DNA of 64,000 bases from positions 62,001 through 126,000 of the forward strand of contig NZ_JAAEDL010000011.1 of NCBI RefSeq assembly GCF_018129005.1. The letters are read 5' to 3'. A program made the translations under genes and the position numbers. Source of the stretch: Neoroseomonas eburnea (GTDB lineage Bacteria > Pseudomonadota > Alphaproteobacteria > Acetobacterales > Acetobacteraceae). This document shows positions 20,958 to 31,297 of this stretch, piece by piece (position 1 is the first letter of the stretch; each line of letters begins with the position of its first letter). The notes beneath the pieces are model-generated. The model was not told the origin of the DNA, did no database searches, and saw only the letters and a program-made list of their open reading frames with translations.

Positions 20958-21143
20958 ATGACCCGCCTTCGTCGCCGCCTCATGATCGCCGCCGGCCTCG
21001 CGATGCCCTTCGCCCGCCCCACGCTCGCCCAGGGCACCCCGGCGATGCGCGGGCGTGCGCCCAGCCGCTTCGCGCCGCACGTGCGGGAGGAGATCGACCT
21101 CAGGGAACCGGCAGTCCGCGCCCTCGGCATCCGGGCGGAATAG
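20958..21143 (+). CDS. Small secreted protein at the head of the ATP-grasp cluster
   Basis: A 61-residue protein: a basic N-region (MTRLRRRL), a hydrophobic core and a cleavage site near 'TLAQG', leaving about 35 mature residues with 'RFAPHVREEIDLREPAVRALGIRAE' at the end (residues 37-61). Not recognised. An AGGA site lies 4-7 nt upstream of the ATG. It ends 11 bp before the first ATP-grasp gene, so it is probably the first gene of that operon. Confidence 0.6.
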   Translation: MTRLRRRLMIAAGLAMPFARPTLAQGTPAMRGRAPSRFAPHVREEIDLREPAVRALGIRAE

Positions 21144-21154
21144 GCGCGCTGCCC

Positions 21155-22318
21155 GTGCCGGCCATCGAGCGCCGCGTCCTGGTGCGCGACGATGCCTTCC
21201 CGCGGCGCGCCGAGGCGCTGGGCTTCACCTTCCACTCGCCCGACGAGCGCGAATACTGGGCGCGCGACGCCTGCTACGTCCTCACGCCCGAGGCCATCGA
21301 GGCGCTGCAGGCGGCGGCACGGGAACTCCTGCCGATGATCGAGGCCGCGGTCGAATCCGTGGTCCGCCGCGGCGACTACCGTGCCTTCGGCTTCACCCCG
21401 CGCCTCGTCGCCCTGGTCGAGGCGTCCTACCGCGCCGCCGAACCCTCCCTCTATGGCCGCTTCGATTTCCGCCTGTCGCCGGACGGCGGGGTCAAGCTGT
21501 TCGAATTCAATGCCGAGACGCCGGCGGCGCTGCTCGAGGCCGCCGTCGTCCAGCTCGCCTGGTTCGAGGAGACGCCCGCCGGCCCGGCCACGCGGCCCGG
21601 CGATGACCAGTGGAATGCGATCGACGACGCGCTGGTCGCGCGCTGGCCGGCGATGGGCCTGCCCCGCCGGATCCACTTCGCCGCCGAGCGCGACCGCGGG
21701 GACGAGATCGCGCAGGTCGCCTACCTGATGGCGACCGCCGGCGCCGCCGGCCACGAAACCGCCTTCCTGCCGGTCGACGACATCTCCTGGCAGCAGGAGA
21801 CCGGCTTCGTCGAGCCCTCGGGCCGGCCGATCGAAGCCTGTTTCAAGCTCTACCCCTGGGACTGGCTGGATGCCGAGGAGGGCGGGCGGCTGCTGCCGCT
21901 CGGCCGCACCCGCTGGATCGAGCCGGCACGCCGCATGCTGCACGCCAACAAGGCGATCCTCGCCGAGCTGTGGTCGATGTTCCCGGGGCATCCGCTGCTG
22001 CTGCCCGCCTCGCTCGACCGCGCGGCGATCGACGGTCCGGCGATCGGCAAGCCGGCGCTCGGGCTGGAAGGTCACGGCATGCGCGTGGAGGGCGTCGCCG
22101 AGGATGCCTCCACCGACATCGCCGAGGGTTTGCCTCCATCCCCTACGATCTGGCAACAATGGGCGCCATTGCCGGGCCACGCGACACCGTCGGGCGTCGC
22201 CTATCCGGTCATGGGCGTGTGGGTGGTCGGCGACGATCCCTGCGGCCTCGGTATCCGGGAGGGCGACGAGCTCGTGACGACGCTGGAAGACCGCTTCGTG
22301 CCGCATGTGGTGCTGTAG
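21155..22318 (+). CDS. Glutathionylspermidine-synthetase-like ATP-grasp protein, canonical paralogue (YgiC/YjfC type)
   Basis: A 387-residue protein of the GspS-C-terminal/YgiC/YjfC family, stand-alone ATP-grasp ligases thought to form amide bonds between a carboxylate and an amine. The Mg/ATP and substrate residues are intact: Arg102 and Asp104 ('YGRFDFRLSPDGG') and Glu117 and Asn119 ('LFEFNAETPAALLEAA'). The late motifs 'ANKAILAELWSMFPGHP', 'IGKPALGLEG', 'WQQWAPLP' and 'RFVPHVVL' are also family-typical. It lacks the amidase half of bifunctional GspS. GTG start at 21155. Substrate unknown. Confidence 0.9.
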   Translation: MPAIERRVLVRDDAFPRRAEALGFTFHSPDEREYWARDACYVLTPEAIEALQAAARELLPMIEAAVESVVRRGDYRAFGFTPRLVALVEASYRAAEPSLYGRFDFRLSPDGGVKLFEFNAETPAALLEAAVVQLAWFEETPAGPATRPGDDQWNAIDDALVARWPAMGLPRRIHFAAERDRGDEIAQVAYLMATAGAAGHETAFLPVDDISWQQETGFVEPSGRPIEACFKLYPWDWLDAEEGGRLLPLGRTRWIEPARRMLHANKAILAELWSMFPGHPLLLPASLDRAAIDGPAIGKPALGLEGHGMRVEGVAEDASTDIAEGLPPSPTIWQQWAPLPGHATPSGVAYPVMGVWVVGDDPCGLGIREGDELVTTLEDRFVPHVVL

Positions 22319-22327
22319 GGCGCAGGC

Positions 22328-23512
22328 GTGACCACCCCACCCTTCCGACGCATCCCGGTGGAGACGCCTGGCCCTTTCCGCGAGCGCCTCCGCAGCCTGG
22401 GCCTCGACGTGCCGGCGCCGGACGGCCTGCCCTATTGGGAGACCGAGGCCGCCTACCTGATCACCGCGCGCAGCGCCGATGCGCTGCTCACGGCCGCCGA
22501 GGGCATACATGCCCGCTGCCTCCAGGCGGTCGATGCCCTGGTGAAGAGCGGCGACTACGGCCATTTCGGCATCAACGCCCCGGCGATGCGCTCCGCCATC
22601 GCGCGGTCCTGGCGGGCGCAGGATTCGCCGCTCTACGGACGCATGGACTTCTCCTTCGCGCCCGACGGCACGCCGATGCTGCTGGACTACGAGGCGGATT
22701 CGCCCTTCGGCCTCGCCGAGGCGTCCTTCGTGCAGTGGGAATGGTTCGAGGCCTGGCAGGCGGCCTCGGGCCAATCCTCCGATTCCCAGGAGAACCTCAT
22801 CTACGAGGATCTCGGCGAGCATTTCCGCAGGCTCGCCCTGCGCGGCCCCGCCGCGGTCGCCTGCGGCGGGGAGGTCGCGGTCAACGGCGGCCCGGCCGAC
22901 ACCACCGAACGCTTCGACGCCGAATTCCTCGCCGAGATCGCGCAGGAACAGGGCAGCCGCCTGCGCATCTGCGCCATCGGCGCGGTCGGCTGGGACATCG
23001 ATGCGCGGCGCTTCGCCGACGACCGCGACGAGTTGCTCGACACGCTGATCAAGATCTACCCCTGGGCCTGGATGGAGGAGGAGGCCAATGCGGAGGTGCT
23101 GCCGCAGAGCCGCACCCGCATCCTGCCCGGGGCCTGGACGCGGCTGCTCGCCGACAAGACGATGATGGCGCTGCTCTGGCACATGTTCCCCGGCACGCCG
23201 AACCTGCTGCCGACCTTCCTCGACCGCCCGGCCGAGGGGGCGATGGTCGCCAAGCCGCGCCGGGGCTGGGATGGCGAGCATGTCTACCTGCCCGGCCAGC
23301 CGATCGGCGAGGTGCCGGAGAACGAGGTCGGGCCCCTGCTGTACCAGGCGCATTGCCCGCTGCCGGTCTTCGCCTCGCCGCGCGGGGAGGTGCACGCCGC
23401 CGTCTCCGTCTGGATGGTCGGCGGCGAGGCCGCCGGCCTGTCCTTCCGCGAATCGCTCGGGCCCGTCACCGGGGTCTCGGCGCGCTTCGTTCCGCACATC
23501 CTGCGCGACTGA
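22328..23512 (+). CDS. Second GspS-like ATP-grasp protein, with altered metal-site residues
   Basis: A 394-residue paralogue of the preceding gene with the same order of motifs: 'YGRMDFSFAPDG' (Arg105, Asp107), 'DKTMMALLWHMFPGTPNLLP', 'VAKPRRGWDGEHV', 'LYQAHCPLP' and 'RFVPHILRD'. The canonical Glu-x-Asn of the metal site is replaced by Asp120-Tyr-Glu122 ('LLDYEADSPFGL'). It may be a partner or pseudoenzyme of the first copy, or use a different metal geometry. GTG start, 9 bp after the first paralogue; clearly co-transcribed. Confidence 0.88.
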   Translation: MTTPPFRRIPVETPGPFRERLRSLGLDVPAPDGLPYWETEAAYLITARSADALLTAAEGIHARCLQAVDALVKSGDYGHFGINAPAMRSAIARSWRAQDSPLYGRMDFSFAPDGTPMLLDYEADSPFGLAEASFVQWEWFEAWQAASGQSSDSQENLIYEDLGEHFRRLALRGPAAVACGGEVAVNGGPADTTERFDAEFLAEIAQEQGSRLRICAIGAVGWDIDARRFADDRDELLDTLIKIYPWAWMEEEANAEVLPQSRTRILPGAWTRLLADKTMMALLWHMFPGTPNLLPTFLDRPAEGAMVAKPRRGWDGEHVYLPGQPIGEVPENEVGPLLYQAHCPLPVFASPRGEVHAAVSVWMVGGEAAGLSFRESLGPVTGVSARFVPHILRD

Positions 23513-23539
23513 CCGCGCGAGCATCCGGGGAAACGCCGC

Positions 23540-23965
23540 ATGACCACCGCCGATGTCCTCGCCATCTTCCCCTCGACCTTCCTGAGTTTCCTCGTCGCCT
23601 TCGCGCTCGGTGCGGTGTTCTGGATCGCCGGGCTGGTCGTGGTCTCCCTGATCACGCCGCATTCGGAACTGACGCTGCTGCGCGCCGGCAACCTGCCCAC
23701 GGCGATCGTGTTCGGCGGCAAGGCGATCGGCATGGTGCTGCCGATCGCCGCGGTGGCACGCTCGGCGGCGGGGCCGCTCGACCAGATCATCTGGTGCGTC
23801 GTCGCGGTGGCGGTCCAGCTCGGCGCGCATCTGCTGCTCTCCACCCTGCTCACCGGGCGGCTGCGGGAGGAGATCGAGGCCGACAAGGTCGGCGGCGCCG
23901 CCGTCTTCATCGCCTTCATGCAGATCGGCGCGGGCATCCTGAACAATGCCTGCATGTCGGGCTGA
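23540..23965 (+). CDS. DUF350 membrane protein (YjfL-like)
   Basis: A 141-residue integral membrane protein with four predicted helices, with family sequences 'LITPHSELTLLRAGNLPTAIVFGGKAIGMVLPIAAV' (residues 37-72) and 'GGAAVFIAFMQIGAGILNNACM' near the end. DUF350 proteins are encoded beside GspS-like ATP-grasp and DUF1190 genes in many bacteria, for example E. coli yjfL-yjfM-yjfC. Function unknown. It sits 27 bp downstream of the second ATP-grasp gene. Confidence 0.88.
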   Translation: MTTADVLAIFPSTFLSFLVAFALGAVFWIAGLVVVSLITPHSELTLLRAGNLPTAIVFGGKAIGMVLPIAAVARSAAGPLDQIIWCVVAVAVQLGAHLLLSTLLTGRLREEIEADKVGGAAVFIAFMQIGAGILNNACMSG

Positions 23966-23974
23966 GGCCGGCTG

Positions 23975-25060
23975 ATGCCGCAGGGCCCGGCCCCGCCGTC
24001 CCGCCGCAGGTCCCGCACGGTGCGGGCGGCGGCCCTCGTCACCCTCGGGCTCGGTGCCGTGGGCTGCGACGAGGCGCCACCGCCGGACCTGCCCGGCCAG
24101 GCTGCCGCACGGCTCGATGCCTGCCGCGCCGCCCACCGGCGCCTCGGCGAGGACCCGGCCCGCTGCGATGCGCTGGAACAGGCGATCGAGCGCGAGCACG
24201 CCGAGACCCGCCCGCAGTTCCGGACCTTTGCCGAATGCCAGGCGCAGTTCGGACCCAATGCCTGCGAGGGCGACGTGCCGCTCGCCACCGGCTCCGGCTG
24301 GCGGCCGGTGCCCGCCGGATGGTCGCAGACCGGCGGCCTGGGTTTCGCGCCCGTGCTGCAGGCGCGGGACGGCCAGTTCTGGCGCCTCTCCGAAGCGAGC
24401 GCGCCGGCGACCGGGGGCGTCGCCTCCCTGCCGCCGCCGCAGCCCGTCGCGGCGCCGGAGCAGCCGGAGCGGGGGCGGATGCCGGCCGGGGCGAGCCTCG
24501 CCTACTACCGCCTGGTGCCGATCTACCCGGACGAGGCTGCCTGCACGGAGGTGTGGCAGCGCTGCGAGACGGTCACGCCGCGCCTCGCCAACCGCTACGC
24601 CTCCGAAGCTGTCTGCCGGGACAACTGGTCGAGTTGCGTCGAGGCCGAATTCGCCGATCTCGCCCTGCCCGCAGCCGCCGCGGCGGCCGCTGCCGCCACC
24701 AGCGGAACCGGCAGCGGCACGGCGGGCACGGGCGGCGGATCCTCCTCCAGGCCTTCCTGGTGGGTGGGCTACAACAATGGCTGGAGCAGGAGCTACGGCA
24801 GCGGCATCGGGCCGCGCTACCAGGGCTGGACCTGGACCGCCGACCGCCAGCCCACCGCCGCCTACCGCCCCGCCTCCGGCACCGGCCCGTTGCTGGCCTG
24901 GGACAGCTCGTCGCGCCGGCTCGGGGCGGCGAACCGGATGGGCACCTATTCCGGCCCAGGTTCGACCCGCGTCGGCGGTTCGACGGTGTCGCGACCGACC
25001 TCCACCATCACGCGCGCCGGCTTCGGTTCGACCGGCCGCGCCTATTCCTCGGGGGGCTGA
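23975..25060 (+). CDS. DUF1190 (YgiB/YjfM-like) lipoprotein
   Basis: A 361-residue lipoprotein: basic N-region, hydrophobic core and lipobox 'LGAVGC' (Cys near residue 29). The DUF1190 core is seen as 'FRTFAECQAQFGPNACEG' and, in a second half, 'YPDEAACTEVWQRCE' with 'EAVCRDNWSSCVEAEF', suggesting an internal repeat of the Cys-rich unit. The C-terminal third is low-complexity Gly/Ser/Thr with Trp and Tyr, like the YgiB tail. It is longer than E. coli YgiB (about 220). Nine bp after the DUF350 stop. Confidence 0.85.
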   Translation: MPQGPAPPSRRRSRTVRAAALVTLGLGAVGCDEAPPPDLPGQAAARLDACRAAHRRLGEDPARCDALEQAIEREHAETRPQFRTFAECQAQFGPNACEGDVPLATGSGWRPVPAGWSQTGGLGFAPVLQARDGQFWRLSEASAPATGGVASLPPPQPVAAPEQPERGRMPAGASLAYYRLVPIYPDEAACTEVWQRCETVTPRLANRYASEAVCRDNWSSCVEAEFADLALPAAAAAAAAATSGTGSGTAGTGGGSSSRPSWWVGYNNGWSRSYGSGIGPRYQGWTWTADRQPTAAYRPASGTGPLLAWDSSSRRLGAANRMGTYSGPGSTRVGGSTVSRPTSTITRAGFGSTGRAYSSGG

Positions 25061-25063
25061 ACC

Positions 25064-25633
25064 ATGTCGGACGCGCAGCGCCACGCCTCCCTTCCCGATG
25101 CGGCGCCGACGGTGCTGGAGAACGGCCAGCGGCGGGCCGTGCTGGTGATGTACGGGGCGGGCCTCGCCATGCTGGCGGTCGGCCTGCTCGTGCCTCCGGC
25201 GGGCGCGCTCTACTGGGTCGCCCTGCTGGTCGCGCCGGTGCTCGGCGGCGGGCTTGGCGGCCTGCTGTCGGGCAGCTTCGGCCGGCGCCTCGACGCGTGG
25301 CTGCTGAGCGGCGGCGCGGTCGCGCAGCGGCCCGCCGGGCGCGCCCCGCTCGCCGAACCGGCACGCGCGGCGCTGCAGGCCGCGATGGTCCCGGCCATGC
25401 TGGCCGATCTCGGCCGCGCGGCCGAAGCTTGGCCCGCACGCGAGAAGGACGCCGCCCGGGCGCTGCTCGCCGCCGCCCTCGGCCCGGCGGCCATGGCGCG
25501 GGAAACCCGCGAGGCCCTCGGGCGCGACCTGCCGCGCGTCATCGCTTCACTCGCCGCCCGGGATGCCTCGGCGGCCGGCGAGGCGGAGGCGCTCGCCGCG
25601 CGGCTTGCCGCGGCCGGAGGCGCAGCCCGATGA
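25064..25633 (+). CDS. Unrecognised membrane protein, 189 aa, in the ATP-grasp cluster
   Basis: No family recognised. An N-terminal soluble stretch of about 25 residues is followed by two adjacent transmembrane helices ('VLVMYGAGLAMLAVGLLV' and 'LYWVALLVAPVLGGGLGGLL'), a short loop and a long Ala-rich cytoplasmic helical tail that may be coiled. It starts 3 bp after the DUF1190 stop and its own stop overlaps the next ATG, so it is translated with the cluster. Confidence 0.78.
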   Translation: MSDAQRHASLPDAAPTVLENGQRRAVLVMYGAGLAMLAVGLLVPPAGALYWVALLVAPVLGGGLGGLLSGSFGRRLDAWLLSGGAVAQRPAGRAPLAEPARAALQAAMVPAMLADLGRAAEAWPAREKDAARALLAAALGPAAMARETREALGRDLPRVIASLAARDASAAGEAEALAARLAAAGGAAR

Positions 25634-25974
25634 AGACGGCTGTCACCCATGCCCGCCTCTACCTGCTCGGCGGTGCCGCGCTGGTGTTCCTCGGCGGGCT
25701 GCTCTTGGCGCTGAACCGATGGAACCAGGCCGAGATCGACCGCGCCTTCGTCGCCGCGGCGGCGCGCGCGGCCGCCGCACCGCCAACCGCGCGGCCCGCC
25801 GCCATGCGCATCTGGGTGCCTGCGGCGAGCGCCACCCCGTCTGCCCGCACCACGCAGATCCAGATCGAGGCGGCCGACCGCCTGCGCGCCGTCCCGTCGC
25901 TGCCGGCCTCCCCGGCCACGCGCCCGTCCGCCACGCCGCCTCCGGCCGGCAAGCCGGCCCCGGCGGCGCCATGA
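25630..25974 (+). CDS. Unrecognised single-pass membrane protein, 114 aa
   Basis: No family recognised. A membrane anchor near the N-terminus (residues 10-28, 'LYLLGGAALVFLGGLLLAL') is followed by 'NRWNQAEIDRAFVAAAARAAA' in part and a Pro/Ala/Thr-rich tail, probably periplasmic or flexible. ATGA overlaps with the genes on both sides (25630-25633 and 25971-25974) make a strict translational chain. Confidence 0.75.
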   Translation: MKTAVTHARLYLLGGAALVFLGGLLLALNRWNQAEIDRAFVAAAARAAAAPPTARPAAMRIWVPAASATPSARTTQIQIEAADRLRAVPSLPASPATRPSATPPPAGKPAPAAP

Positions 25975-26576
25975 TGCTCGCGGTCCTCTTCCTCCTGGCC
26001 GGGCTGGCCATGCCGGTCCTGGCCTGGCGTGTGCTGCGCAGGGCGGACCGGCCGGGTGGCGGCGGAGCCTCGCCGCGGCTGCTCGTGACCGTCCCGGCCG
26101 GGGAGGAAACGCCGCGCCTGACCGTCCAGCGCGGCGATGCCGTCGTCTTCGGCCCGGTCCGGGCGGAATGGAGCGCCCCTCCGGCGATGGCGCGCCTGCT
26201 CGGCAATCCGGACCGCGAGGCCGGCCGCCCGGGCAGCCCCGTCGCGACCGGGACGTATCGCGTCCTCGGCGTCGCGGACACCGCCGCGGCACTGCCAGGC
26301 AGCGGCGACGCCGCCCTCGATGACCGGCTGCGGCAGGCCATCGGCCCGACGGCGATGGTCCTCGCACCCGTCGCCGACGGCGCGCCGATCCTGCTGCATG
26401 GCCTCGTGGCGAAGGAAAAGGGCAGTGCGGGCGGCATCGCCATTCCGCCCTCCGCCCTCGACAGGCTGCTCGGCGTGCTGGGCGACGCCCAGGGGATCGA
26501 AGTCGAGGTCGTCCGGCGTCGGATCCAGCGCAGCGGCTGGGGCGTCGGCGGCAGCCGGCGCCGGCGCGGCGGATGA
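25971..26576 (+). CDS. Unrecognised membrane-anchored protein, 201 aa, last gene of the cluster
   Basis: One N-terminal helix (residues 2-22) then a beta-rich domain: 'RLTVQRGDAVVFGPVRAEWSAPPAM', 'ATGTYRVLGVADT', 'MVLAPVADGAPILLHG' and 'AIPPSALDRLLGVLG' as separate blocks. The 'TGTYRV...LHG' layout loosely recalls L,D-transpeptidase-like folds, but no catalytic Cys is present, so no function is claimed. The start overlaps the previous stop (ATGA). The tail is Arg/Gly-rich. The 241-bp gap that follows (26577-26817) has no convincing gene. Confidence 0.75.
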   Translation: MMLAVLFLLAGLAMPVLAWRVLRRADRPGGGGASPRLLVTVPAGEETPRLTVQRGDAVVFGPVRAEWSAPPAMARLLGNPDREAGRPGSPVATGTYRVLGVADTAAALPGSGDAALDDRLRQAIGPTAMVLAPVADGAPILLHGLVAKEKGSAGGIAIPPSALDRLLGVLGDAQGIEVEVVRRRIQRSGWGVGGSRRRRGG

Positions 26577-26817: not shown

Positions 26818-29800
26818 TCAGGCCGCCGAGGATCGGGCCGAGGCTGCGGCGGTCGCTTGCGGCTCGGCCTCCCTGGCCTTCCCCCGGCGCGCCATGGCGC
26901 GCGCGACGACGTAGAAGACCGGCGTGAAGAGCAGGCCGAAGATCGTCACCCCCAGCATGCCGTAGAACACCGCGGTGCCGAGGCTCTGGCGCATCTCTGC
27001 CCCCGCCCCGGTCGCGACGGTCAGCGGCAGCACGCCGAGGATGAAGGCGAGGCTCGTCATCAGGATCGGCCGCAGCCGGGTTCGTGCGGCGGCGACCGCC
27101 GCATCCCAGCGCGATGCTCCTTCCTCCTCCGCCGCGCGGGCGAATTCGACGATCAGGATGGCGTTCTTGGCCGCGAGGCCGACCAGCACCACCAGCCCCA
27201 CCTGCACCAGCACGTTGTTGTCGAGGCCGGCGTAGCGGACGCCCATCAGCGCCGCCAGCACCGACATCGGCGCGATCAGCACGATGGCGAGCGGCAGCAG
27301 CCAGCTTTCGTACATCGCCGCCAGCACCAGGAAGACGAAGACGACTGCGAGGCCGAAGGCGATCGGCGCGGTATTGCCGACCAGCTTCTCCTGGAGCGCG
27401 ATCTCGGTCCATTCGTAGCCGAAGCCCTCGGGCAGGTTCTCGGCCAGCACACGTTCCATGATGGCGATGGCCTGGCCGGTCGAGACACCCGGCAGCGCCG
27501 CGCCCTGAAGTTCCACCGCCGGGAAGAGGTTGTAGCGCGGCATGCGGTAGGGGCCGGAGGTCTCCCGGAAGGTCGCGAGGCTGCCGAGCGGCACCATCGC
27601 CCCGGCATCGCTGCGGGTGCGCAGCCGGGCGATGTCCTCCGCCCCCGTACGGTATTGCGCATCGGCCTGGGCAGTGACACGCCAGGTTCGGCCGAGCAGG
27701 TTGAAATCGTTGACGAAGGCGGAGCCGAGATAGACGCCCATCGCCTCGTGCACCCGGCTGACCGGCACGCCGAGCATCTCCGCCCGGGCGCGGTCGATCT
27801 CGGTGCGGACCTGCGGTGTCGCCGTGTTGAACAGGCTGAACGCGAAGGCGATGCCGGGGGTCTGATTGGCCGCGCCCATCACCGCATGCAGCGCGGCCTC
27901 CATCTCCCGCGGGCCGCGCCCGGCGCGGTCCTGGATCATCAGCTTGAAGCCGCCGCCGGTGCCGATGCCGGGCACCGAGGGCGGCGCCAGCACGAAGACC
28001 ATCGCGTCCGGGTCGCCCATCAGCCGGCCCTGCAGGTCGGCCAGGATGCCCCCGGTGGTCAGGTGATGCTCGGCCCGCTCCTCGAACGGCTTGAGCGTCG
28101 CGAAGACCACGCCGGCATTGGGCGCGTTGGTGAAGGTCGCGCCGTCGAAGCCGACGAAGGCGACCGCGCTCTCGACGCCCGGCGTCGCCAGGATGGCCTC
28201 CGAGGCGCGGCGGATCACCGCATCGGTGCGGGACAGGTTCGCCCCCGGCGGCAACTGGAAGGCGGCGATGAAATAGCCGCGGTCGAGCGGCGGGATCAGC
28301 CCCGTCGGCGTGCTCGTGACGGTCCAGCCGGTCGCGGCCAGCAGCCCGCCATAGATCAGCAGCAGCAGCACGGGGATGCGGATCAGCCGCCGCGTCAGCG
28401 CGCCGTAGCCGATGGAGAGCCTGTCGAACAGCCAGTTGAACCCCCGCGCGAAGGCGCCGAAGGGCCGCAGCAGCAGCGGCCCGGGTCCTTCAAGGTGCGC
28501 ATGGGGCTTGAGCAGGATCGCCGCCAGCGCCGGCGACAGCGTCAGCGACACCAGCGCCGAGAGCAGCGTCGCGACCGAGATCGTCACCGCGAACTGCTTG
28601 TAGAAGGCGCCGGAGATGCCGGTGATGAAGGCGGTCGGCACGAAGACCGCGACCAGCACCAGGGCGATCGCGATCAGCGCGAAGCCGACCTCGTCCATCG
28701 TCTTCCGCGCGGCCTCCAGCGGCGAAAGGCCGGCGGCCATGTGCCGCTCCGCATTCTCCACCACCACGATGGCGTCGTCGACCACGATGCCGATGGCGAG
28801 GATCAGGCCGAACATGGTCAGCGTGTTCAGCGTGAAGCCGAGGGCGAGCAGGATCGCGAAGGTGCCGATGATCGACACCGGGATGGCTGCCAGCGGGATG
28901 ATCGCCGCGCGCCAGTTCTGCAGGAAGAGGATGACGACGAAGACGACGAGCAGGATCGCCTCGACGAAGGTGTGCAGCACCGCTTCCATGCTCTGGGCGA
29001 TGAAGCGCGTCGGGTCGTAGACGATGCTGTAGCCGATCCCGGGCGGGAAGGACCGCGCCGCCTCCTCCATGGCGGCGCGCACGGCGGCCGCGGTCTGCAG
29101 CGCATTGCTGCCCGGCCGCTGGAAGACGGCGATGGCGGTGGCTAGCCGATTGTTCAGCAGTGCGTTCACCGTGTAGTCCGCCGCGCCGATCTCGATGCGC
29201 GCGACATCGCGCAGGCGCAACGGCGCGCCGTGCTCGCCGGTGGCGATGATCTGCTCGCCGAACTCCTCGGGCGTCGCCAGGCGGCCCTGGGTCAGCACCG
29301 ACAGTTCGAAGGCCCCGGCGGTCTCGGCGCGCGGCGCCTGGCCGAGCGCGCCGGCCGCGACCTGCACATTGGCGCGGCGCAGCGCATCCACCACCTCGCC
29401 GGCGGTCAGGCCGCGCGCGGCGATGCGGTCCGGGTCGAGCCACACGCGCATCGCATAGTCGCGCGCGCCGAACACCTGCGCGTCGCCGACGCCGTCGATG
29501 CGCGCGAGCCGGTCCTTGATGTTCAGCGTCGCGTAGTTGGAGATGTATTCATGGTCGCGGCTGCCGTCCGGCGAGATGATGTGCACCACCATCAGGAAGT
29601 CCGGGCTCGCCTTGCGCACGGTGATGCCGAGGCGGCGGACCTCCTCCGGCAGACGCGGCTCGGCCACCGCGACGCGGTTCTGCACCAGCACCTGCGCCTG
29701 GTCGCCGTCCACGCCCTGGCGGAACACCACGGTCACGGTCAGCCGCCCGTCGCCGGTGGATTGGGAGGTGACGTAGAGCATGCCGTCCACGCCGTTCACC

Positions 29801-30009
29801 TCCTGCTCGATCGGGCCGGCGACGGTCTCGGCGATCGTTTCGGCCGAGGCGCCGGGATAGAGCGCGGTGATCGTCACGCTGGGCGGGGCGATCTCCGGAT
29901 ACTCCGAGATCGGCAGGCGGAAGGCCGCGATCGCGCCCACCAGCGTGATCGCGATGGAGATGACCGCGGCGAAGACCGGACGGTCGATGAAGAAGCGTGC
30001 GAGGCGCAT
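26818..30009 (-). CDS. RND multidrug efflux pump, AcrB/MexB (HAE1) type
   Basis: A 1063-residue inner-membrane proton/drug antiporter of standard length. It begins 'MRLARFFIDRPVFAAVISI', has two large periplasmic loops, and keeps the proton-relay Asp pair in 'GIVVDDAIVVVENAERH' (about residues 400-415) and the Lys in 'GLAAKNAILIVEFARAAEEEG'. It forms a unit with the adaptor gene (71 bp upstream in transcription order). No outer-membrane TolC/OprM gene is present, so the exit duct must be encoded elsewhere. It is convergent with the ATP-grasp cluster. Confidence 0.96.
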   Translation of the reverse strand: MRLARFFIDRPVFAAVISIAITLVGAIAAFRLPISEYPEIAPPSVTITALYPGASAETIAETVAGPIEQEVNGVDGMLYVTSQSTGDGRLTVTVVFRQGVDGDQAQVLVQNRVAVAEPRLPEEVRRLGITVRKASPDFLMVVHIISPDGSRDHEYISNYATLNIKDRLARIDGVGDAQVFGARDYAMRVWLDPDRIAARGLTAGEVVDALRRANVQVAAGALGQAPRAETAGAFELSVLTQGRLATPEEFGEQIIATGEHGAPLRLRDVARIEIGAADYTVNALLNNRLATAIAVFQRPGSNALQTAAAVRAAMEEAARSFPPGIGYSIVYDPTRFIAQSMEAVLHTFVEAILLVVFVVILFLQNWRAAIIPLAAIPVSIIGTFAILLALGFTLNTLTMFGLILAIGIVVDDAIVVVENAERHMAAGLSPLEAARKTMDEVGFALIAIALVLVAVFVPTAFITGISGAFYKQFAVTISVATLLSALVSLTLSPALAAILLKPHAHLEGPGPLLLRPFGAFARGFNWLFDRLSIGYGALTRRLIRIPVLLLLIYGGLLAATGWTVTSTPTGLIPPLDRGYFIAAFQLPPGANLSRTDAVIRRASEAILATPGVESAVAFVGFDGATFTNAPNAGVVFATLKPFEERAEHHLTTGGILADLQGRLMGDPDAMVFVLAPPSVPGIGTGGGFKLMIQDRAGRGPREMEAALHAVMGAANQTPGIAFAFSLFNTATPQVRTEIDRARAEMLGVPVSRVHEAMGVYLGSAFVNDFNLLGRTWRVTAQADAQYRTGAEDIARLRTRSDAGAMVPLGSLATFRETSGPYRMPRYNLFPAVELQGAALPGVSTGQAIAIMERVLAENLPEGFGYEWTEIALQEKLVGNTAPIAFGLAVVFVFLVLAAMYESWLLPLAIVLIAPMSVLAALMGVRYAGLDNNVLVQVGLVVLVGLAAKNAILIVEFARAAEEEGASRWDAAVAAARTRLRPILMTSLAFILGVLPLTVATGAGAEMRQSLGTAVFYGMLGVTIFGLLFTPVFYVVARAMARRGKAREAEPQATAAASARSSAA

Positions 30010-30080
30010 CGGGGGCGGGCCTTCGGCGTGGCCGGCCGCGTCATGCGCCCGGCGGGGGTTCCGTGGGGGGGGGGGTGGCC

Positions 30081-31274
30081 TTAACGGGCTTCGGCGAAGG
30101 GGCTCGCGCCGATCCGGCCCTGCTCGGCGGTCACGCGCATGCCCGGCCTTGCGCGGTGCAGCCCGCCGATGATGACGCGGTCCTGCGGGGTCAGGCCGCT
30201 GCGCACGACGCGCAGCCCCTCCGTCAGCGGACCGAGCCGCACCTGGCGCGGCGCGACGGTGCCCTCCGCCGTGACGGTCAGCACCATGCGGCCGGCCTGG
30301 TCGGCCATCACCGCGGCATCCGGCACCAGCAGGGCGGGTTCCTCGCCGGTCGAGAGCCGGACGCGGGCGAAGGTGCCCGGCGTCAGGAAGAGGTCCGGGT
30401 TCGGCACCACCGCGCGGGCGCGGATGGTGCCGCTGCGGTTGTCGAAGACGCTGTCGACGAAGTCGATCCGGCCCTCGCGGGAGAATTCAGCCTCGTCCAG
30501 CAGACGGAGCTGCACCGGCAGGCTGCCATCGCGCAGCCCGGCCCGCGCCGCGCGGGCCTGACGGAGGTATTCGGCCTCGCTGGCGTCGAAGGTGACATAG
30601 ACGGGGTCGAGCGCGACCAGGGTGGTCAGCAGCGTCTGGCCCTGCTGCACCAGGTTGCCGGCATCGACGCGACGGTCGCTGATGCGGCCCGCGCGCGGCG
30701 CACGGATTTCGGTGAATTCGAGATCGAGCGCCGCCTGGCGTTCCGCGGCCCGGGCGGCGGCGAGGCCGGCTTGGGCCTCGCGCAGCGCGGCGCGGCGGGA
30801 ATCGAGCTCCGCCTGCGGGGCGATGCGGCTGGCGGCCAGCGGCTCGTAACGGGCGACCTGCTGTTCGGCGAGCAGCAGCCGCGCCTCGTTGCGCGCCACC
30901 TCGGCCCGCGCGGTCTCCAGCGCGATGCGGAAGGGCCGCTGGTCGAGCGTGAACAGCAGGTCCCCGGCGCGGACGATGGCGCCGTCGGTGAAATGCACCT
31001 GCTCGACCTGGCCGGAGACGCGGGCGCGCAACTCGACCCTGGCGGAGGGCTCGATCCGCGCCGTGTGCTCCTGCCATTCCGTCACCGGCCGCGCGAGCGG
31101 CGCGGCCACCGTGACCGGCGGGGGCGCGGCGGCAGGCTGGGCGAGGGCCGGTGCCGTCGCCACCGCCGAACCGGCCGCCAGCGCCGCGCGGAGCGTCGCA
31201 CCCTGCACGCGGGCCAGCCATGTCGGCCAGAAGGCGGAGGTCGGTGCGGCGGCCTTGCGCTGGGGGGTGGCCAT
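30081..31274 (-). CDS. RND efflux periplasmic adaptor (AcrA/MexA type)
   Basis: A 397-residue membrane-fusion protein linking the RND pump to an outer-membrane channel. Order of parts: export signal, barrel-sandwich strand ('VELRARVSGQVEQVHFTDGAIVRAGD' in part), helical hairpin (residues 110-175), second lipoyl half ('IRAPRAGRISDRRVDAG'), beta-barrel and membrane-proximal domain. I choose the second ATG (31274), because the GGAG site is 8 nt away; the first ATG at 31280 is too close to it. Expression is probably controlled by the divergent TetR protein. Confidence 0.94.
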   Translation of the reverse strand: MATPQRKAAAPTSAFWPTWLARVQGATLRAALAAGSAVATAPALAQPAAAPPPVTVAAPLARPVTEWQEHTARIEPSARVELRARVSGQVEQVHFTDGAIVRAGDLLFTLDQRPFRIALETARAEVARNEARLLLAEQQVARYEPLAASRIAPQAELDSRRAALREAQAGLAAARAAERQAALDLEFTEIRAPRAGRISDRRVDAGNLVQQGQTLLTTLVALDPVYVTFDASEAEYLRQARAARAGLRDGSLPVQLRLLDEAEFSREGRIDFVDSVFDNRSGTIRARAVVPNPDLFLTPGTFARVRLSTGEEPALLVPDAAVMADQAGRMVLTVTAEGTVAPRQVRLGPLTEGLRVVRSGLTPQDRVIIGGLHRARPGMRVTAEQGRIGASPFAEAR

Positions 31275-31297
31275 GTGCATATCTCCGAATGTTGATA

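What the first reader, a model, noticed from the sequence alone, without database searches (positions are those of the whole stretch)
20958..26576. Seven-gene envelope cluster built around two ATP-grasp ligase-like proteins
Seen: a 61-aa secreted protein, two adjacent GspS-like ATP-grasp paralogues, DUF350, a DUF1190 lipoprotein and three unrecognised membrane-anchored proteins run in one direction with gaps of 28 bp or less and two ATGA overlaps. Known: YgiC/YjfC (ATP-grasp), YjfL (DUF350) and YgiB/YjfM (DUF1190) are neighbours in E. coli, where ygiBC also lies beside tolC. Inference: this is an enlarged version of an uncharacterised envelope-modification system that ligates an amine to a peptide or lipid carboxylate, with three new components. 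Its convergent neighbour is an RND pump, a suggestive parallel to tolC-ygiBC.
Basis: partly seen in the sequence, partly recalled or inferred. Interest (0 to 1): 0.78.

Follow-up and report, generated by a model that had tools for sequence, protein, structure and literature searches.

The report
Paired ligases with tail-tagged partner proteins
A seven-gene bacterial membrane cassette carries two related ligase enzymes and two proteins with a similar glycine-containing C-terminal tail, and a survey suggests that such tails may be what this enzyme family acts on in many bacteria.

Summary
The cassette is real, but its edges shift. The 61-aa first gene is not conserved. The seven genes at 21155-26576 (two GspS-like ATP-grasps, DUF350, DUF1190, three unrecognised proteins) recur in order in the 13 other genus genomes whose locus is uncut, and in a sister genus; the RND neighbour does not.

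The ATP-grasps group with E. coli YgiC/YjfC, now named peptide-spermidine ligases. Every second one (g3) has D and E where relatives have E and N at two presumed metal ligands. The last protein (g8) has a predicted L,D-transpeptidase fold with Gly at the presumed catalytic Cys.

Main new result: YgiC-type ligases usually sit beside a protein ending in RGGFG plus a short, mostly Ser/Gly tail (61 of 69 named loci; 62 of 1794 nearby ORFs, 2 of 6570 elsewhere). Eight glutathionylspermidine synthetase/amidase loci have none (0 of 453 ORFs). In the window only g5 (RAGFG) and g8 (RSGWG) carry such tails, both starting 15 residues from the end.

I propose that the tails are the ligases' natural protein substrates and that this cassette is a two-ligase, two-tail version. 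The chemistry is inferred, not shown.

The parts
21155..22318 (+). g2: GspS-like ATP-grasp ligase, YgiC/YjfC type, 387 aa; presumed ATP, metal and substrate residues kept (R102, D104, E117, N119, K266, K299, R368)
   Evidence: PF03738 342.8 bits; YgiC 7uk8 E 1.6e-68 with profile A2; residue table (the roles of the E. coli GspS residues are recalled)
22328..23512 (+). g3: second, faster-changing ATP-grasp paralogue, 394 aa; presumed metal ligands E and N replaced by D120 and E122 (bases 22685-22687 and 22691-22693)
   Evidence: PF03738 261.6 bits; D and E in 11 of 11 named g3 and invariant in 15 of 15 rows of A1, against E and N in 68 of 68 outside relatives and 11 of 11 g2
23540..23965 (+). 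g4: DUF350 (YjfL family) membrane protein, 141 aa
   Evidence: PF03994 96.1 bits; 74-84% identical in the 15 genus and 2 sister-genus loci that hold it
23975..25060 (+). g5: DUF1190 (YgiB/YjfM family) putative lipoprotein, 361 aa, first tail-bearing protein
   Evidence: PF06693 48.5 bits; alignment A6; lipoprotein call by eye, the lipobox is weak
25013..25057 (+). C-terminal tail of g5, RAGFGSTGRAYSSGG (residues 347-361)
   Evidence: R347, A348, G349, F350, G351, S352, T353, G354, S358, G360, G361 invariant in 10 of 10 rows; one of two ORFs of 423 in the window with the pattern
25064..25633 (+). g6: unrecognised, hydrophobic N-terminal part then an Ala-rich, probably helical part, 189 aa
   Evidence: no Pfam/NCBIfam match for the window protein; no family matched by more than 2 of 16 members; conserved in place
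25630..25974 (+). g7: unrecognised, one hydrophobic stretch and a Pro/Ala-rich tail, 114 aa
   Evidence: no match over cut-off; conserved in place
25971..26576 (+). g8: N-terminal hydrophobic helix plus a predicted L,D-transpeptidase (YkuD) fold with Gly155 at the presumed catalytic Cys, 201 aa; second tail-bearing protein
26529..26573 (+). C-terminal tail of g8, starting RSGWG (residues 187-201)
   Evidence: R187, G189, W190, G191 invariant in 18 of 18; the other of two ORFs of 423 in the window with the pattern

Best explanation
A doubled version of the YgiC-YgiB type system. Step 1 (shown by sequence): g2 and g3 are GspS-fold ATP-grasp ligases; g2 keeps the presumed catalytic residues, g3 has a changed presumed metal site. 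Step 2 (shown by survey): ligases of this type are usually encoded with a protein that ends in a conserved (S/T/Q)R(G/S/A)GFG motif and a short, mostly Ser/Gly tail. Step 3 (inferred): that C-terminus is the natural 'peptide' of the peptide-spermidine ligase. The enzyme recognises the RGGFG motif, activates the terminal carboxylate (usually Gly or Ser) as an acyl phosphate with ATP, and joins it to spermidine or a similar amine, giving a polyamine-capped protein. Step 4 (inferred): here g2 serves g5 and the diverged g3 serves g8, whose tail has Trp in place of Phe. g4 (DUF350), g6 and g7 would hold ligases and substrates at the inner membrane. g8 uses a catalytically dead L,D-transpeptidase fold as a binding or scaffold domain. 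The capped proteins would change surface charge or membrane/cell-wall contacts under envelope stress.
For: Closest structures YgiC and YjfC, named peptide--spermidine ligases in RefSeq and in the title of Pederick 2023 seen in reference lists. Tail next to ligase: 61 of 69 named loci. With the core pattern [RK][GSA]GFG in the last 32 residues: 62 of 1794 ORFs near, 2 of 6570 elsewhere; with the first, wider pattern 63 and 8; on a greedy gene set with the wider pattern 21 of 255 versus 1 of 762, p 2e-12. Other loci: 12 of 15 family loci; phylum set 23 of 30, sense 24 of 430, antisense 0 of 430; class set 20 of 27, sense 20 of 391, antisense 0 of 396. Most misses carry near variants or a tail just outside the stretch searched. 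Over 84 tails the Arg lies 15-17 residues from the end in 48 and 12-18 in 70, the last residue is S or G in 75, and the bodies fall into 10 groups by BLASTP. Negative control: 0 of 453 ORFs in 8 loci of full-length Gss, aligned over the amidase and synthetase halves. DUF1190 and PF03738 occur together in 28 of 29 DUF1190 genomes of 190, p 4e-28; the one DUF1190 protein in a genome without PF03738 is also the one of 29 with no GGFG-like tail. In the genus, DUF1190 is found in 15 of the 16 g3 genomes (the other is cut at a contig end) and in 0 of 19 without g3. Precedent: SUMO and ubiquitin C-terminal Gly joined to spermidine (PMC12270671, abstract and passages).
Against: No modified protein was seen. 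Many tail proteins look exported by eye, while the ligases show no export signal by eye, so the ligase must act before export or the tail must stay inside. The motif was first noticed in loci that also enter the first count. The g8 tail has W (F in all 84 survey tails), a variable second residue and a basic end; it fits the wider pattern but not the core one, so its membership is weaker, and the g3-g8 pairing rests on co-occurrence alone. g3 could be inactive.
Confidence: 0.5

Rival explanations
1. The ligases make a small peptide-polyamine metabolite from free peptides; the tail protein is a partner that docks on the ligase or carries the product, and its RGGFG end is a binding motif, not the substrate.
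For: GspS and trypanothione synthetase act on small peptides (established knowledge); YgiC/YjfC activity was reported on peptides (title only). The tails would be conserved for docking too.
Against: Docking does not by itself explain why the motif sits at a preferred distance from the C-terminus and why the last residue is Gly or Ser in 75 of 84.
Confidence: 0.25
2. g3 is a non-catalytic or regulatory paralogue that pairs with g2, and the likeness of the g8 tail is chance; there is one ligase-tail pair (g2-g5) plus accessory proteins. This does not exclude the main model for g2-g5.
For: Both presumed metal ligands are changed in every g3 seen; g3 changes faster than g2; the g8 tail has W, not F.
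Against: D and E can still bind metal, they are invariant in 15 of 15, and the presumed Lys and Arg residues are kept. The g8 RxGWG block is among its few invariant positions, and g5 and g8 are the only two hits of 423 window ORFs.
Confidence: 0.35
3. The RGGFG tail is a sorting, assembly or stability signal of envelope proteins, linked to the ligase only by shared regulation.
For: Many tail proteins look like lipoproteins or membrane proteins by eye; YgiB is listed in outer-membrane vesicles of a tolA mutant (PMC7973035, passage).
Against: The tail is nearly absent elsewhere in the same loci (2 of 6570) and absent beside Gss-type enzymes; it persists when the tail gene is about 4 kb away or on the other strand (L190 with L268, and L255); the one DUF1190 protein without the ligase lacks it.
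Confidence: 0.12

Closest known systems
E. coli ygiBC and yjfIJKLMC (YgiC/YjfC peptide-spermidine ligases with DUF1190 YgiB/YjfM and DUF350 YjfL)
   Same: ATP-grasp of the same family, DUF350, DUF1190 with an RGG(F/Y)G C-terminal tail
   Different: Two adjacent ligases instead of one per locus, one with a changed presumed metal site; no PspA, DUF2170 or DUF2491 protein found in the cassette; three extra genes g6-g8, one with a predicted dead L,D-transpeptidase fold and a second tail
PspA-CesT/Tir operons with GspS-like ATP-grasp, DUF350, DUF1190 and DUF2491 (Ravi et al. 2024, PMC11237479, passages read)
   Same: ATP-grasp, DUF350 and DUF1190 together; link to polyamines and envelope proposed there
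   Different: No PspA/CesT-Tir dyad, potassium channel or DUF2491 in the window cassette; the passages read do not mention a tail
Glutathionylspermidine synthetase/amidase (E. coli Gss) and trypanothione synthetase
   Same: Synthetase fold and the presumed active-site residues in g2
   Different: No amidase domain; 8 loci of full-length Gss and the E. coli gss locus have no tail protein; YgiC is said to lack the Gss activity (Sui 2012 as cited in a passage of PMC12506659)
SUMO/ubiquitin-spermidine conjugation (PMC12270671, abstract and passages)
   Same: Spermidine joined to a protein C-terminal Gly
   Different: Uses E1/E2 enzymes, not an ATP-grasp ligase; a parallel in outcome only
L,D-transpeptidases (YkuD fold)
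   Same: Predicted fold of g8 residues 30-183
   Different: Presumed catalytic Cys replaced by Gly in 18 of 18 rows; domain may face the cytosol by charge

Membership tests
YgiC/YjfC-type GspS-like ATP-grasp ligase | PF03738 match over cut-off, stand-alone length near 390 aa | tested here: met
   g2 342.8 and g3 261.6 bits, 387 and 394 aa
YgiC/YjfC-type GspS-like ATP-grasp ligase | YgiC/YjfC are the nearest solved structures by sequence | tested here: met
   7uk8 and 7uk6 first for both
YgiC/YjfC-type GspS-like ATP-grasp ligase | Presumed metal ligands E and N kept, g2 | tested here: met
   E117, N119; 11 of 11 named g2 (roles recalled)
YgiC/YjfC-type GspS-like ATP-grasp ligase | Presumed metal ligands E and N kept, g3 | tested here: not met
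   D120, E122 in 11 of 11 named g3; g3 is homologous but not a standard member
YgiC/YjfC-type GspS-like ATP-grasp ligase | Joins spermidine to peptides | not testable with these tools
   needs an enzyme assay
DUF1190 (YgiB/YjfM) | PF06693 over cut-off | tested here: met
   48.5 bits, cut-off 22
DUF1190 (YgiB/YjfM) | GGFG-type C-terminal tail (a feature proposed here) | tested here: met
   RAGFG 15 residues from the end
PspA-CesT/Tir ATP-grasp operon (Ravi 2024) | PspA and CesT/Tir (DUF2170) dyad, DUF2491 | tested here: not met
   none among the window's eight proteins; no phmmer hit to E. coli YjfI, YjfJ or YjfK in the stretches held of L103-L113; PspA elsewhere in the genome was not searched
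L,D-transpeptidase (YkuD) | YkuD fold | tested here: met
L,D-transpeptidase (YkuD) | Catalytic Cys in S-x-G-C | tested here: not met
   Gly155 in 18 of 18, placed by eye and by a non-significant profile alignment; the genome's own four YkuD proteins read SAGC twice, SHGC and SSGC
L,D-transpeptidase (YkuD) | Sequence-profile membership (PF03734) | tested here: not met
   no PF03734 match listed for 18 members up to E 10; hhalign with the genome's own YkuD proteins not significant
Bifunctional glutathionylspermidine synthetase/amidase | N-terminal amidase domain fused to synthetase | tested here: not met
   g2 and g3 are synthetase only

The most novel reading that the evidence does not exclude
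Bacteria of many phyla (by record titles Proteobacteria, Actinobacteria, Planctomycetes, Verrucomicrobia, Armatimonadetes, Nitrospira, Cyanobacteria, Bacteroidota) cap selected envelope proteins at the C-terminus with a polyamine. A YgiC-type ATP-grasp ligase reads an RGGFG tail, a portable tag carried by protein bodies of some ten groups without BLAST similarity. The Neoroseomonas-type cassette evolved a second, orthogonal ligase-tag pair (g3 with the RxGWG tail of g8).
Probability: 0.38. Interest if true: 0.88.

Novelty: new variant of a known kind. Interest (0 to 1): 0.72.

Why it matters
YgiC and YjfC are named peptide-spermidine ligases, but the listings and passages that I saw name no natural peptide for them (the key 2023 paper is not held). 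The tail gives a concrete candidate that can be tested in E. coli K-12. If right, it would add a C-terminal protein modification to bacterial biology and give DUF1190 proteins a role. The doubled cassette here, with a ligase whose presumed metal site is changed and a partner whose tail has a different aromatic residue, would be a natural experiment in how ligase and tail match.

Tried and rejected
(1) RND pump and tolC parallel: the RND and ribonucleotide-reductase neighbours (labels recalled) have no match in the flanks held of the 19 relatives L063-L081. (2) The 61-aa gene as a component: not conserved. (3) The tail as a translation-coupling artefact: rejected because it persists when the tail gene lies about 4 kb from the ligase (L190 with L268), about 2.3 kb upstream (L254) or on the other strand (L255). 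(4) A g5 structure: model too poor to use (pLDDT 42.0); its low-confidence tail is no evidence of disorder. (5) Sequence-profile proof of the YkuD fold of g8: failed; the fold claim rests on a predicted model of middling confidence built from 9 sequences. (6) Weak g8 hits elsewhere in the family (E 8e-6 to 8e-4): L097-L102 and L061 were rescanned; only L100 gave a listed match, in another context. (7) Promoter/terminator scan: nothing useful. (8) GspS metal residues in print: not found; the residue roles are recalled. (9) Tail in print: a search for RGGFG with C-terminal returned 2 papers, both on RNA-binding or disordered proteins by their titles and abstracts; DUF1190 appears in 2 papers held. 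(10) L113 cannot be judged: a run of N covers the place of g5-g8.

Results against the reading: 8 of 69 named loci lack the pattern; five have variants (L115, L122, L133, L147, L170), and L131, L158 (cut short) and L181 show none. Three of 15 family loci lack it; L090 has an SGGFG variant, L082 and L091 none seen. With the wider pattern the class set gave 21 of 27 loci, 21 of 391 sense and 3 of 396 antisense, but L285 counted only through RSGYS beside its SGGFG; the core pattern gives 20 of 27 and 0 of 396 antisense. Some near hits of the wider pattern look spurious (L084 at 10762; the second hit of L129). The 3 hits elsewhere and those elsewhere were not inspected one by one. A looser control gave 84 of 2797 ORFs with the motif in the last 45 residues, but those ORFs include the ligase loci themselves. 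The counts are of six-frame ORFs, many not genes; the greedy gene set, which loses many short tail genes, gave 21 of 255 versus 1 of 762. In L078 g7 and g8 do not overlap as read. In one search my own column labels were off by one; the G155 count is. One g8 row (L081) has a Cys two places before Gly155.
Full report
What is there. The window is G000, contig C11, 62001-126000; the named relatives with the most similar cassettes are Neoroseomonas and other Roseomonas-type species. Eight ORFs run on the + strand from 20958 to 26576 as described. Pfam finds GSP_synth in g2 and g3, DUF350 in g4 and DUF1190 in g5, and nothing over a cut-off in the first gene or in g6-g8.

Unit of conservation. Of 35 genus genomes, 16 including this one have g3. 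In the other 15, g2-g3-g4 are adjacent and in order; 13 hold all of g2-g8 and two are cut by contig ends inside g5. In a sister genus (Pseudoroseomonas, judged by the equal contig length of L112 and the G298 contig) one genome has all seven (L080) and one has all but a detectable g6, with a 623-base space in its place (L081); two more are cut by contig ends but keep g6-g8 (L078) or g5-g8 (L079). Both 4-base overlaps (g6/g7, g7/g8) are kept in 14 of the 15 fetched loci where all three genes were read; in L080 the g6/g7 overlap is 1 base. The 61-aa gene, the ribonucleotide reductase and the RND pump have no match in the flanks held. None of the 69 other loci gave a g6, g7 or g8 hit. A quick tree puts all 7 sampled g2 in one group and all 7 g3 in another, inside one 15-row set with one outside row (SH-aLRT 95), which fits an old duplication.

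The two ligases. Profile searches place YgiC (7uk8) and YjfC (7uk6) first for both. RefSeq calls these peptide--spermidine ligases; the source, Pederick 2023, I know only from its title in reference lists, as it is not held. On an alignment with E. coli Gss, the residues that I recall as Arg316, Asp318, Lys498, Lys533 and Arg598 of GspS are kept in both g2 and g3. The recalled metal ligands Glu330 and Asn332 are E and N in 68 of 68 outside relatives and 11 of 11 named g2, but D and E in 11 of 11 named g3, and the same D-Y-E-A-D block is invariant in 15 of 15 g3 rows. So g3 is a distinct paralogue under constraint.

The tail. Reading the C-termini of DUF1190 proteins and of short proteins between DUF350 and ATP-grasp genes showed a shared ending: S/T/Q-R-G-G-F-G, then about ten mostly Ser/Gly residues. 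With the pattern [RK][AGSF]G[FYWM][GS] in the last 32 residues, 61 of 69 named loci outside the Roseomonas group have such an ORF on the ligase strand within 3 kb: 63 of 1794 ORFs near and 8 of 6570 elsewhere. With the core [RK][GSA]GFG the loci stay 61 and the counts are 62 and 2. The pattern was made after seeing some of these loci, so I tested others: 12 of 15 family loci, 14 of 395 near and 3 of 1388 elsewhere; 23 of 30 phylum loci, 24 of 430 sense and 0 of 430 antisense; 20 of 27 class loci, 20 of 391 sense and 0 of 396 antisense with the core (21, 21 and 3 with the wider pattern). Of the 7 phylum misses, 5 carry variants (SGGFG, RQGFG, FGGFG) and 2 have a strict tail farther away (L254, L255). 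Of the 6 class misses, 4 carry variants; the DUF1190 proteins of the other two genomes end in ARGGFG and RNAGFG forms. The class set shares genomes with the DUF1190 set, so these two are not independent.

Tail statistics. In 84 loci of the named and phylum sets, one tail protein each: motif RGGFG 75, RSGFG 8, KGGFG 1; Arg (or Lys) 12-18 residues from the end in 70, 15-17 in 48; last residue S 44, G 31, A 3, T 3, other 3; with the last 35 residues removed the bodies fall into 10 groups by BLASTP at E 1e-3, of sizes 43, 12, 11, 5, 4, 4, 2, 1, 1, 1. The groups may still be related beyond BLAST. A portable ending at a preferred place, on different bodies, next to one enzyme, is what one expects of a recognition tag.

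Controls. Eight loci whose enzyme aligns with E. coli Gss from residue 1-10 to 617-619 at 45-84% identity, so over both amidase and synthetase halves, have 0 of 453 ORFs with the tail, and the E. coli gss locus has none. In 190 class genomes (the same draw, judged by its handles) DUF1190 is in 29 and PF03738 over cut-off in 32, both in 28 (Fisher p 4e-28). The single DUF1190 genome without PF03738 (G562, L211) has the only one of 29 DUF1190 proteins without any GGFG-like ending: 25 of 29 match the pattern, and three more have RGGLG, RNAGFG or AGGFG. In the genus, DUF1190 is found in 15 of the 16 g3 genomes, the other being cut at a contig end, and in 0 of the 19 without g3.

Back to the window. 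Of 423 ORFs of 50 aa or more in the whole 64 kb, two carry the wider pattern: g5 and g8, each with the Arg 15 residues from its end. Of the 69 named loci, 68 hold one ligase ORF and one (L163) holds two ORF pieces; the single-ligase loci elsewhere in five genomes of this genus (L092-L096) have one tail each. This cassette has two ligases and two tails. That is the basis for the proposed g2-g5 and g3-g8 pairs. The second pair is the weaker: its tail has Trp for Phe, a variable second position and a basic end, and does not fit the core pattern.

Mechanism and status. Shown here: gene content, conservation, ligase family, g3 substitutions, tail-ligase association and its controls. Predicted: the g8 fold. 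Inferred: that the tail is the substrate, that the amine is spermidine, where the reaction takes place, and what it does to the cell. Ravi et al. 2024 (passages read) already joined this ATP-grasp, DUF350 and DUF1190 with PspA and polyamines; my reading adds a candidate substrate. None of the listings and passages that I saw mentions the tail, but Pederick 2023 and Iyer 2009 could not be read, so the idea may already be in print.

Noticed in passing
L092-L096 (G112, G107, G109, G111, G108): Five genomes of the same genus have a further single GspS-like ligase with its own tail protein (and a DUF350 match in three of the five) elsewhere in the genome; the window's genome has no third PF03738 match.
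   Followed up: partly
L255 (G711): A PspA/DUF2170/ligase group divergent from a DUF2491/DUF350/DUF1190 group, with the tail gene on the opposite strand to the ligase.
   Followed up: no
L253 (G765): Two overlapping frames downstream of a ligase both end in a QRGGFG-containing tail; one is probably a shadow frame.
   Followed up: no
L100 620-1906: A distant relative of the g8 domain (E 9e-8) in a larger open frame, with no match to g2-g5 in the 8.4 kb held.
   Followed up: no
L130 and L156: Metagenome bins titled Bordetella parapertussis and Asaia bogorensis hold these loci; their titles were not checked.
   Followed up: no
window 26818-31280, - strand: An RND efflux pump gene and its likely adaptor gene (labels by eye) converge on the cassette, but the pump is not a conserved neighbour.
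   Followed up: partly
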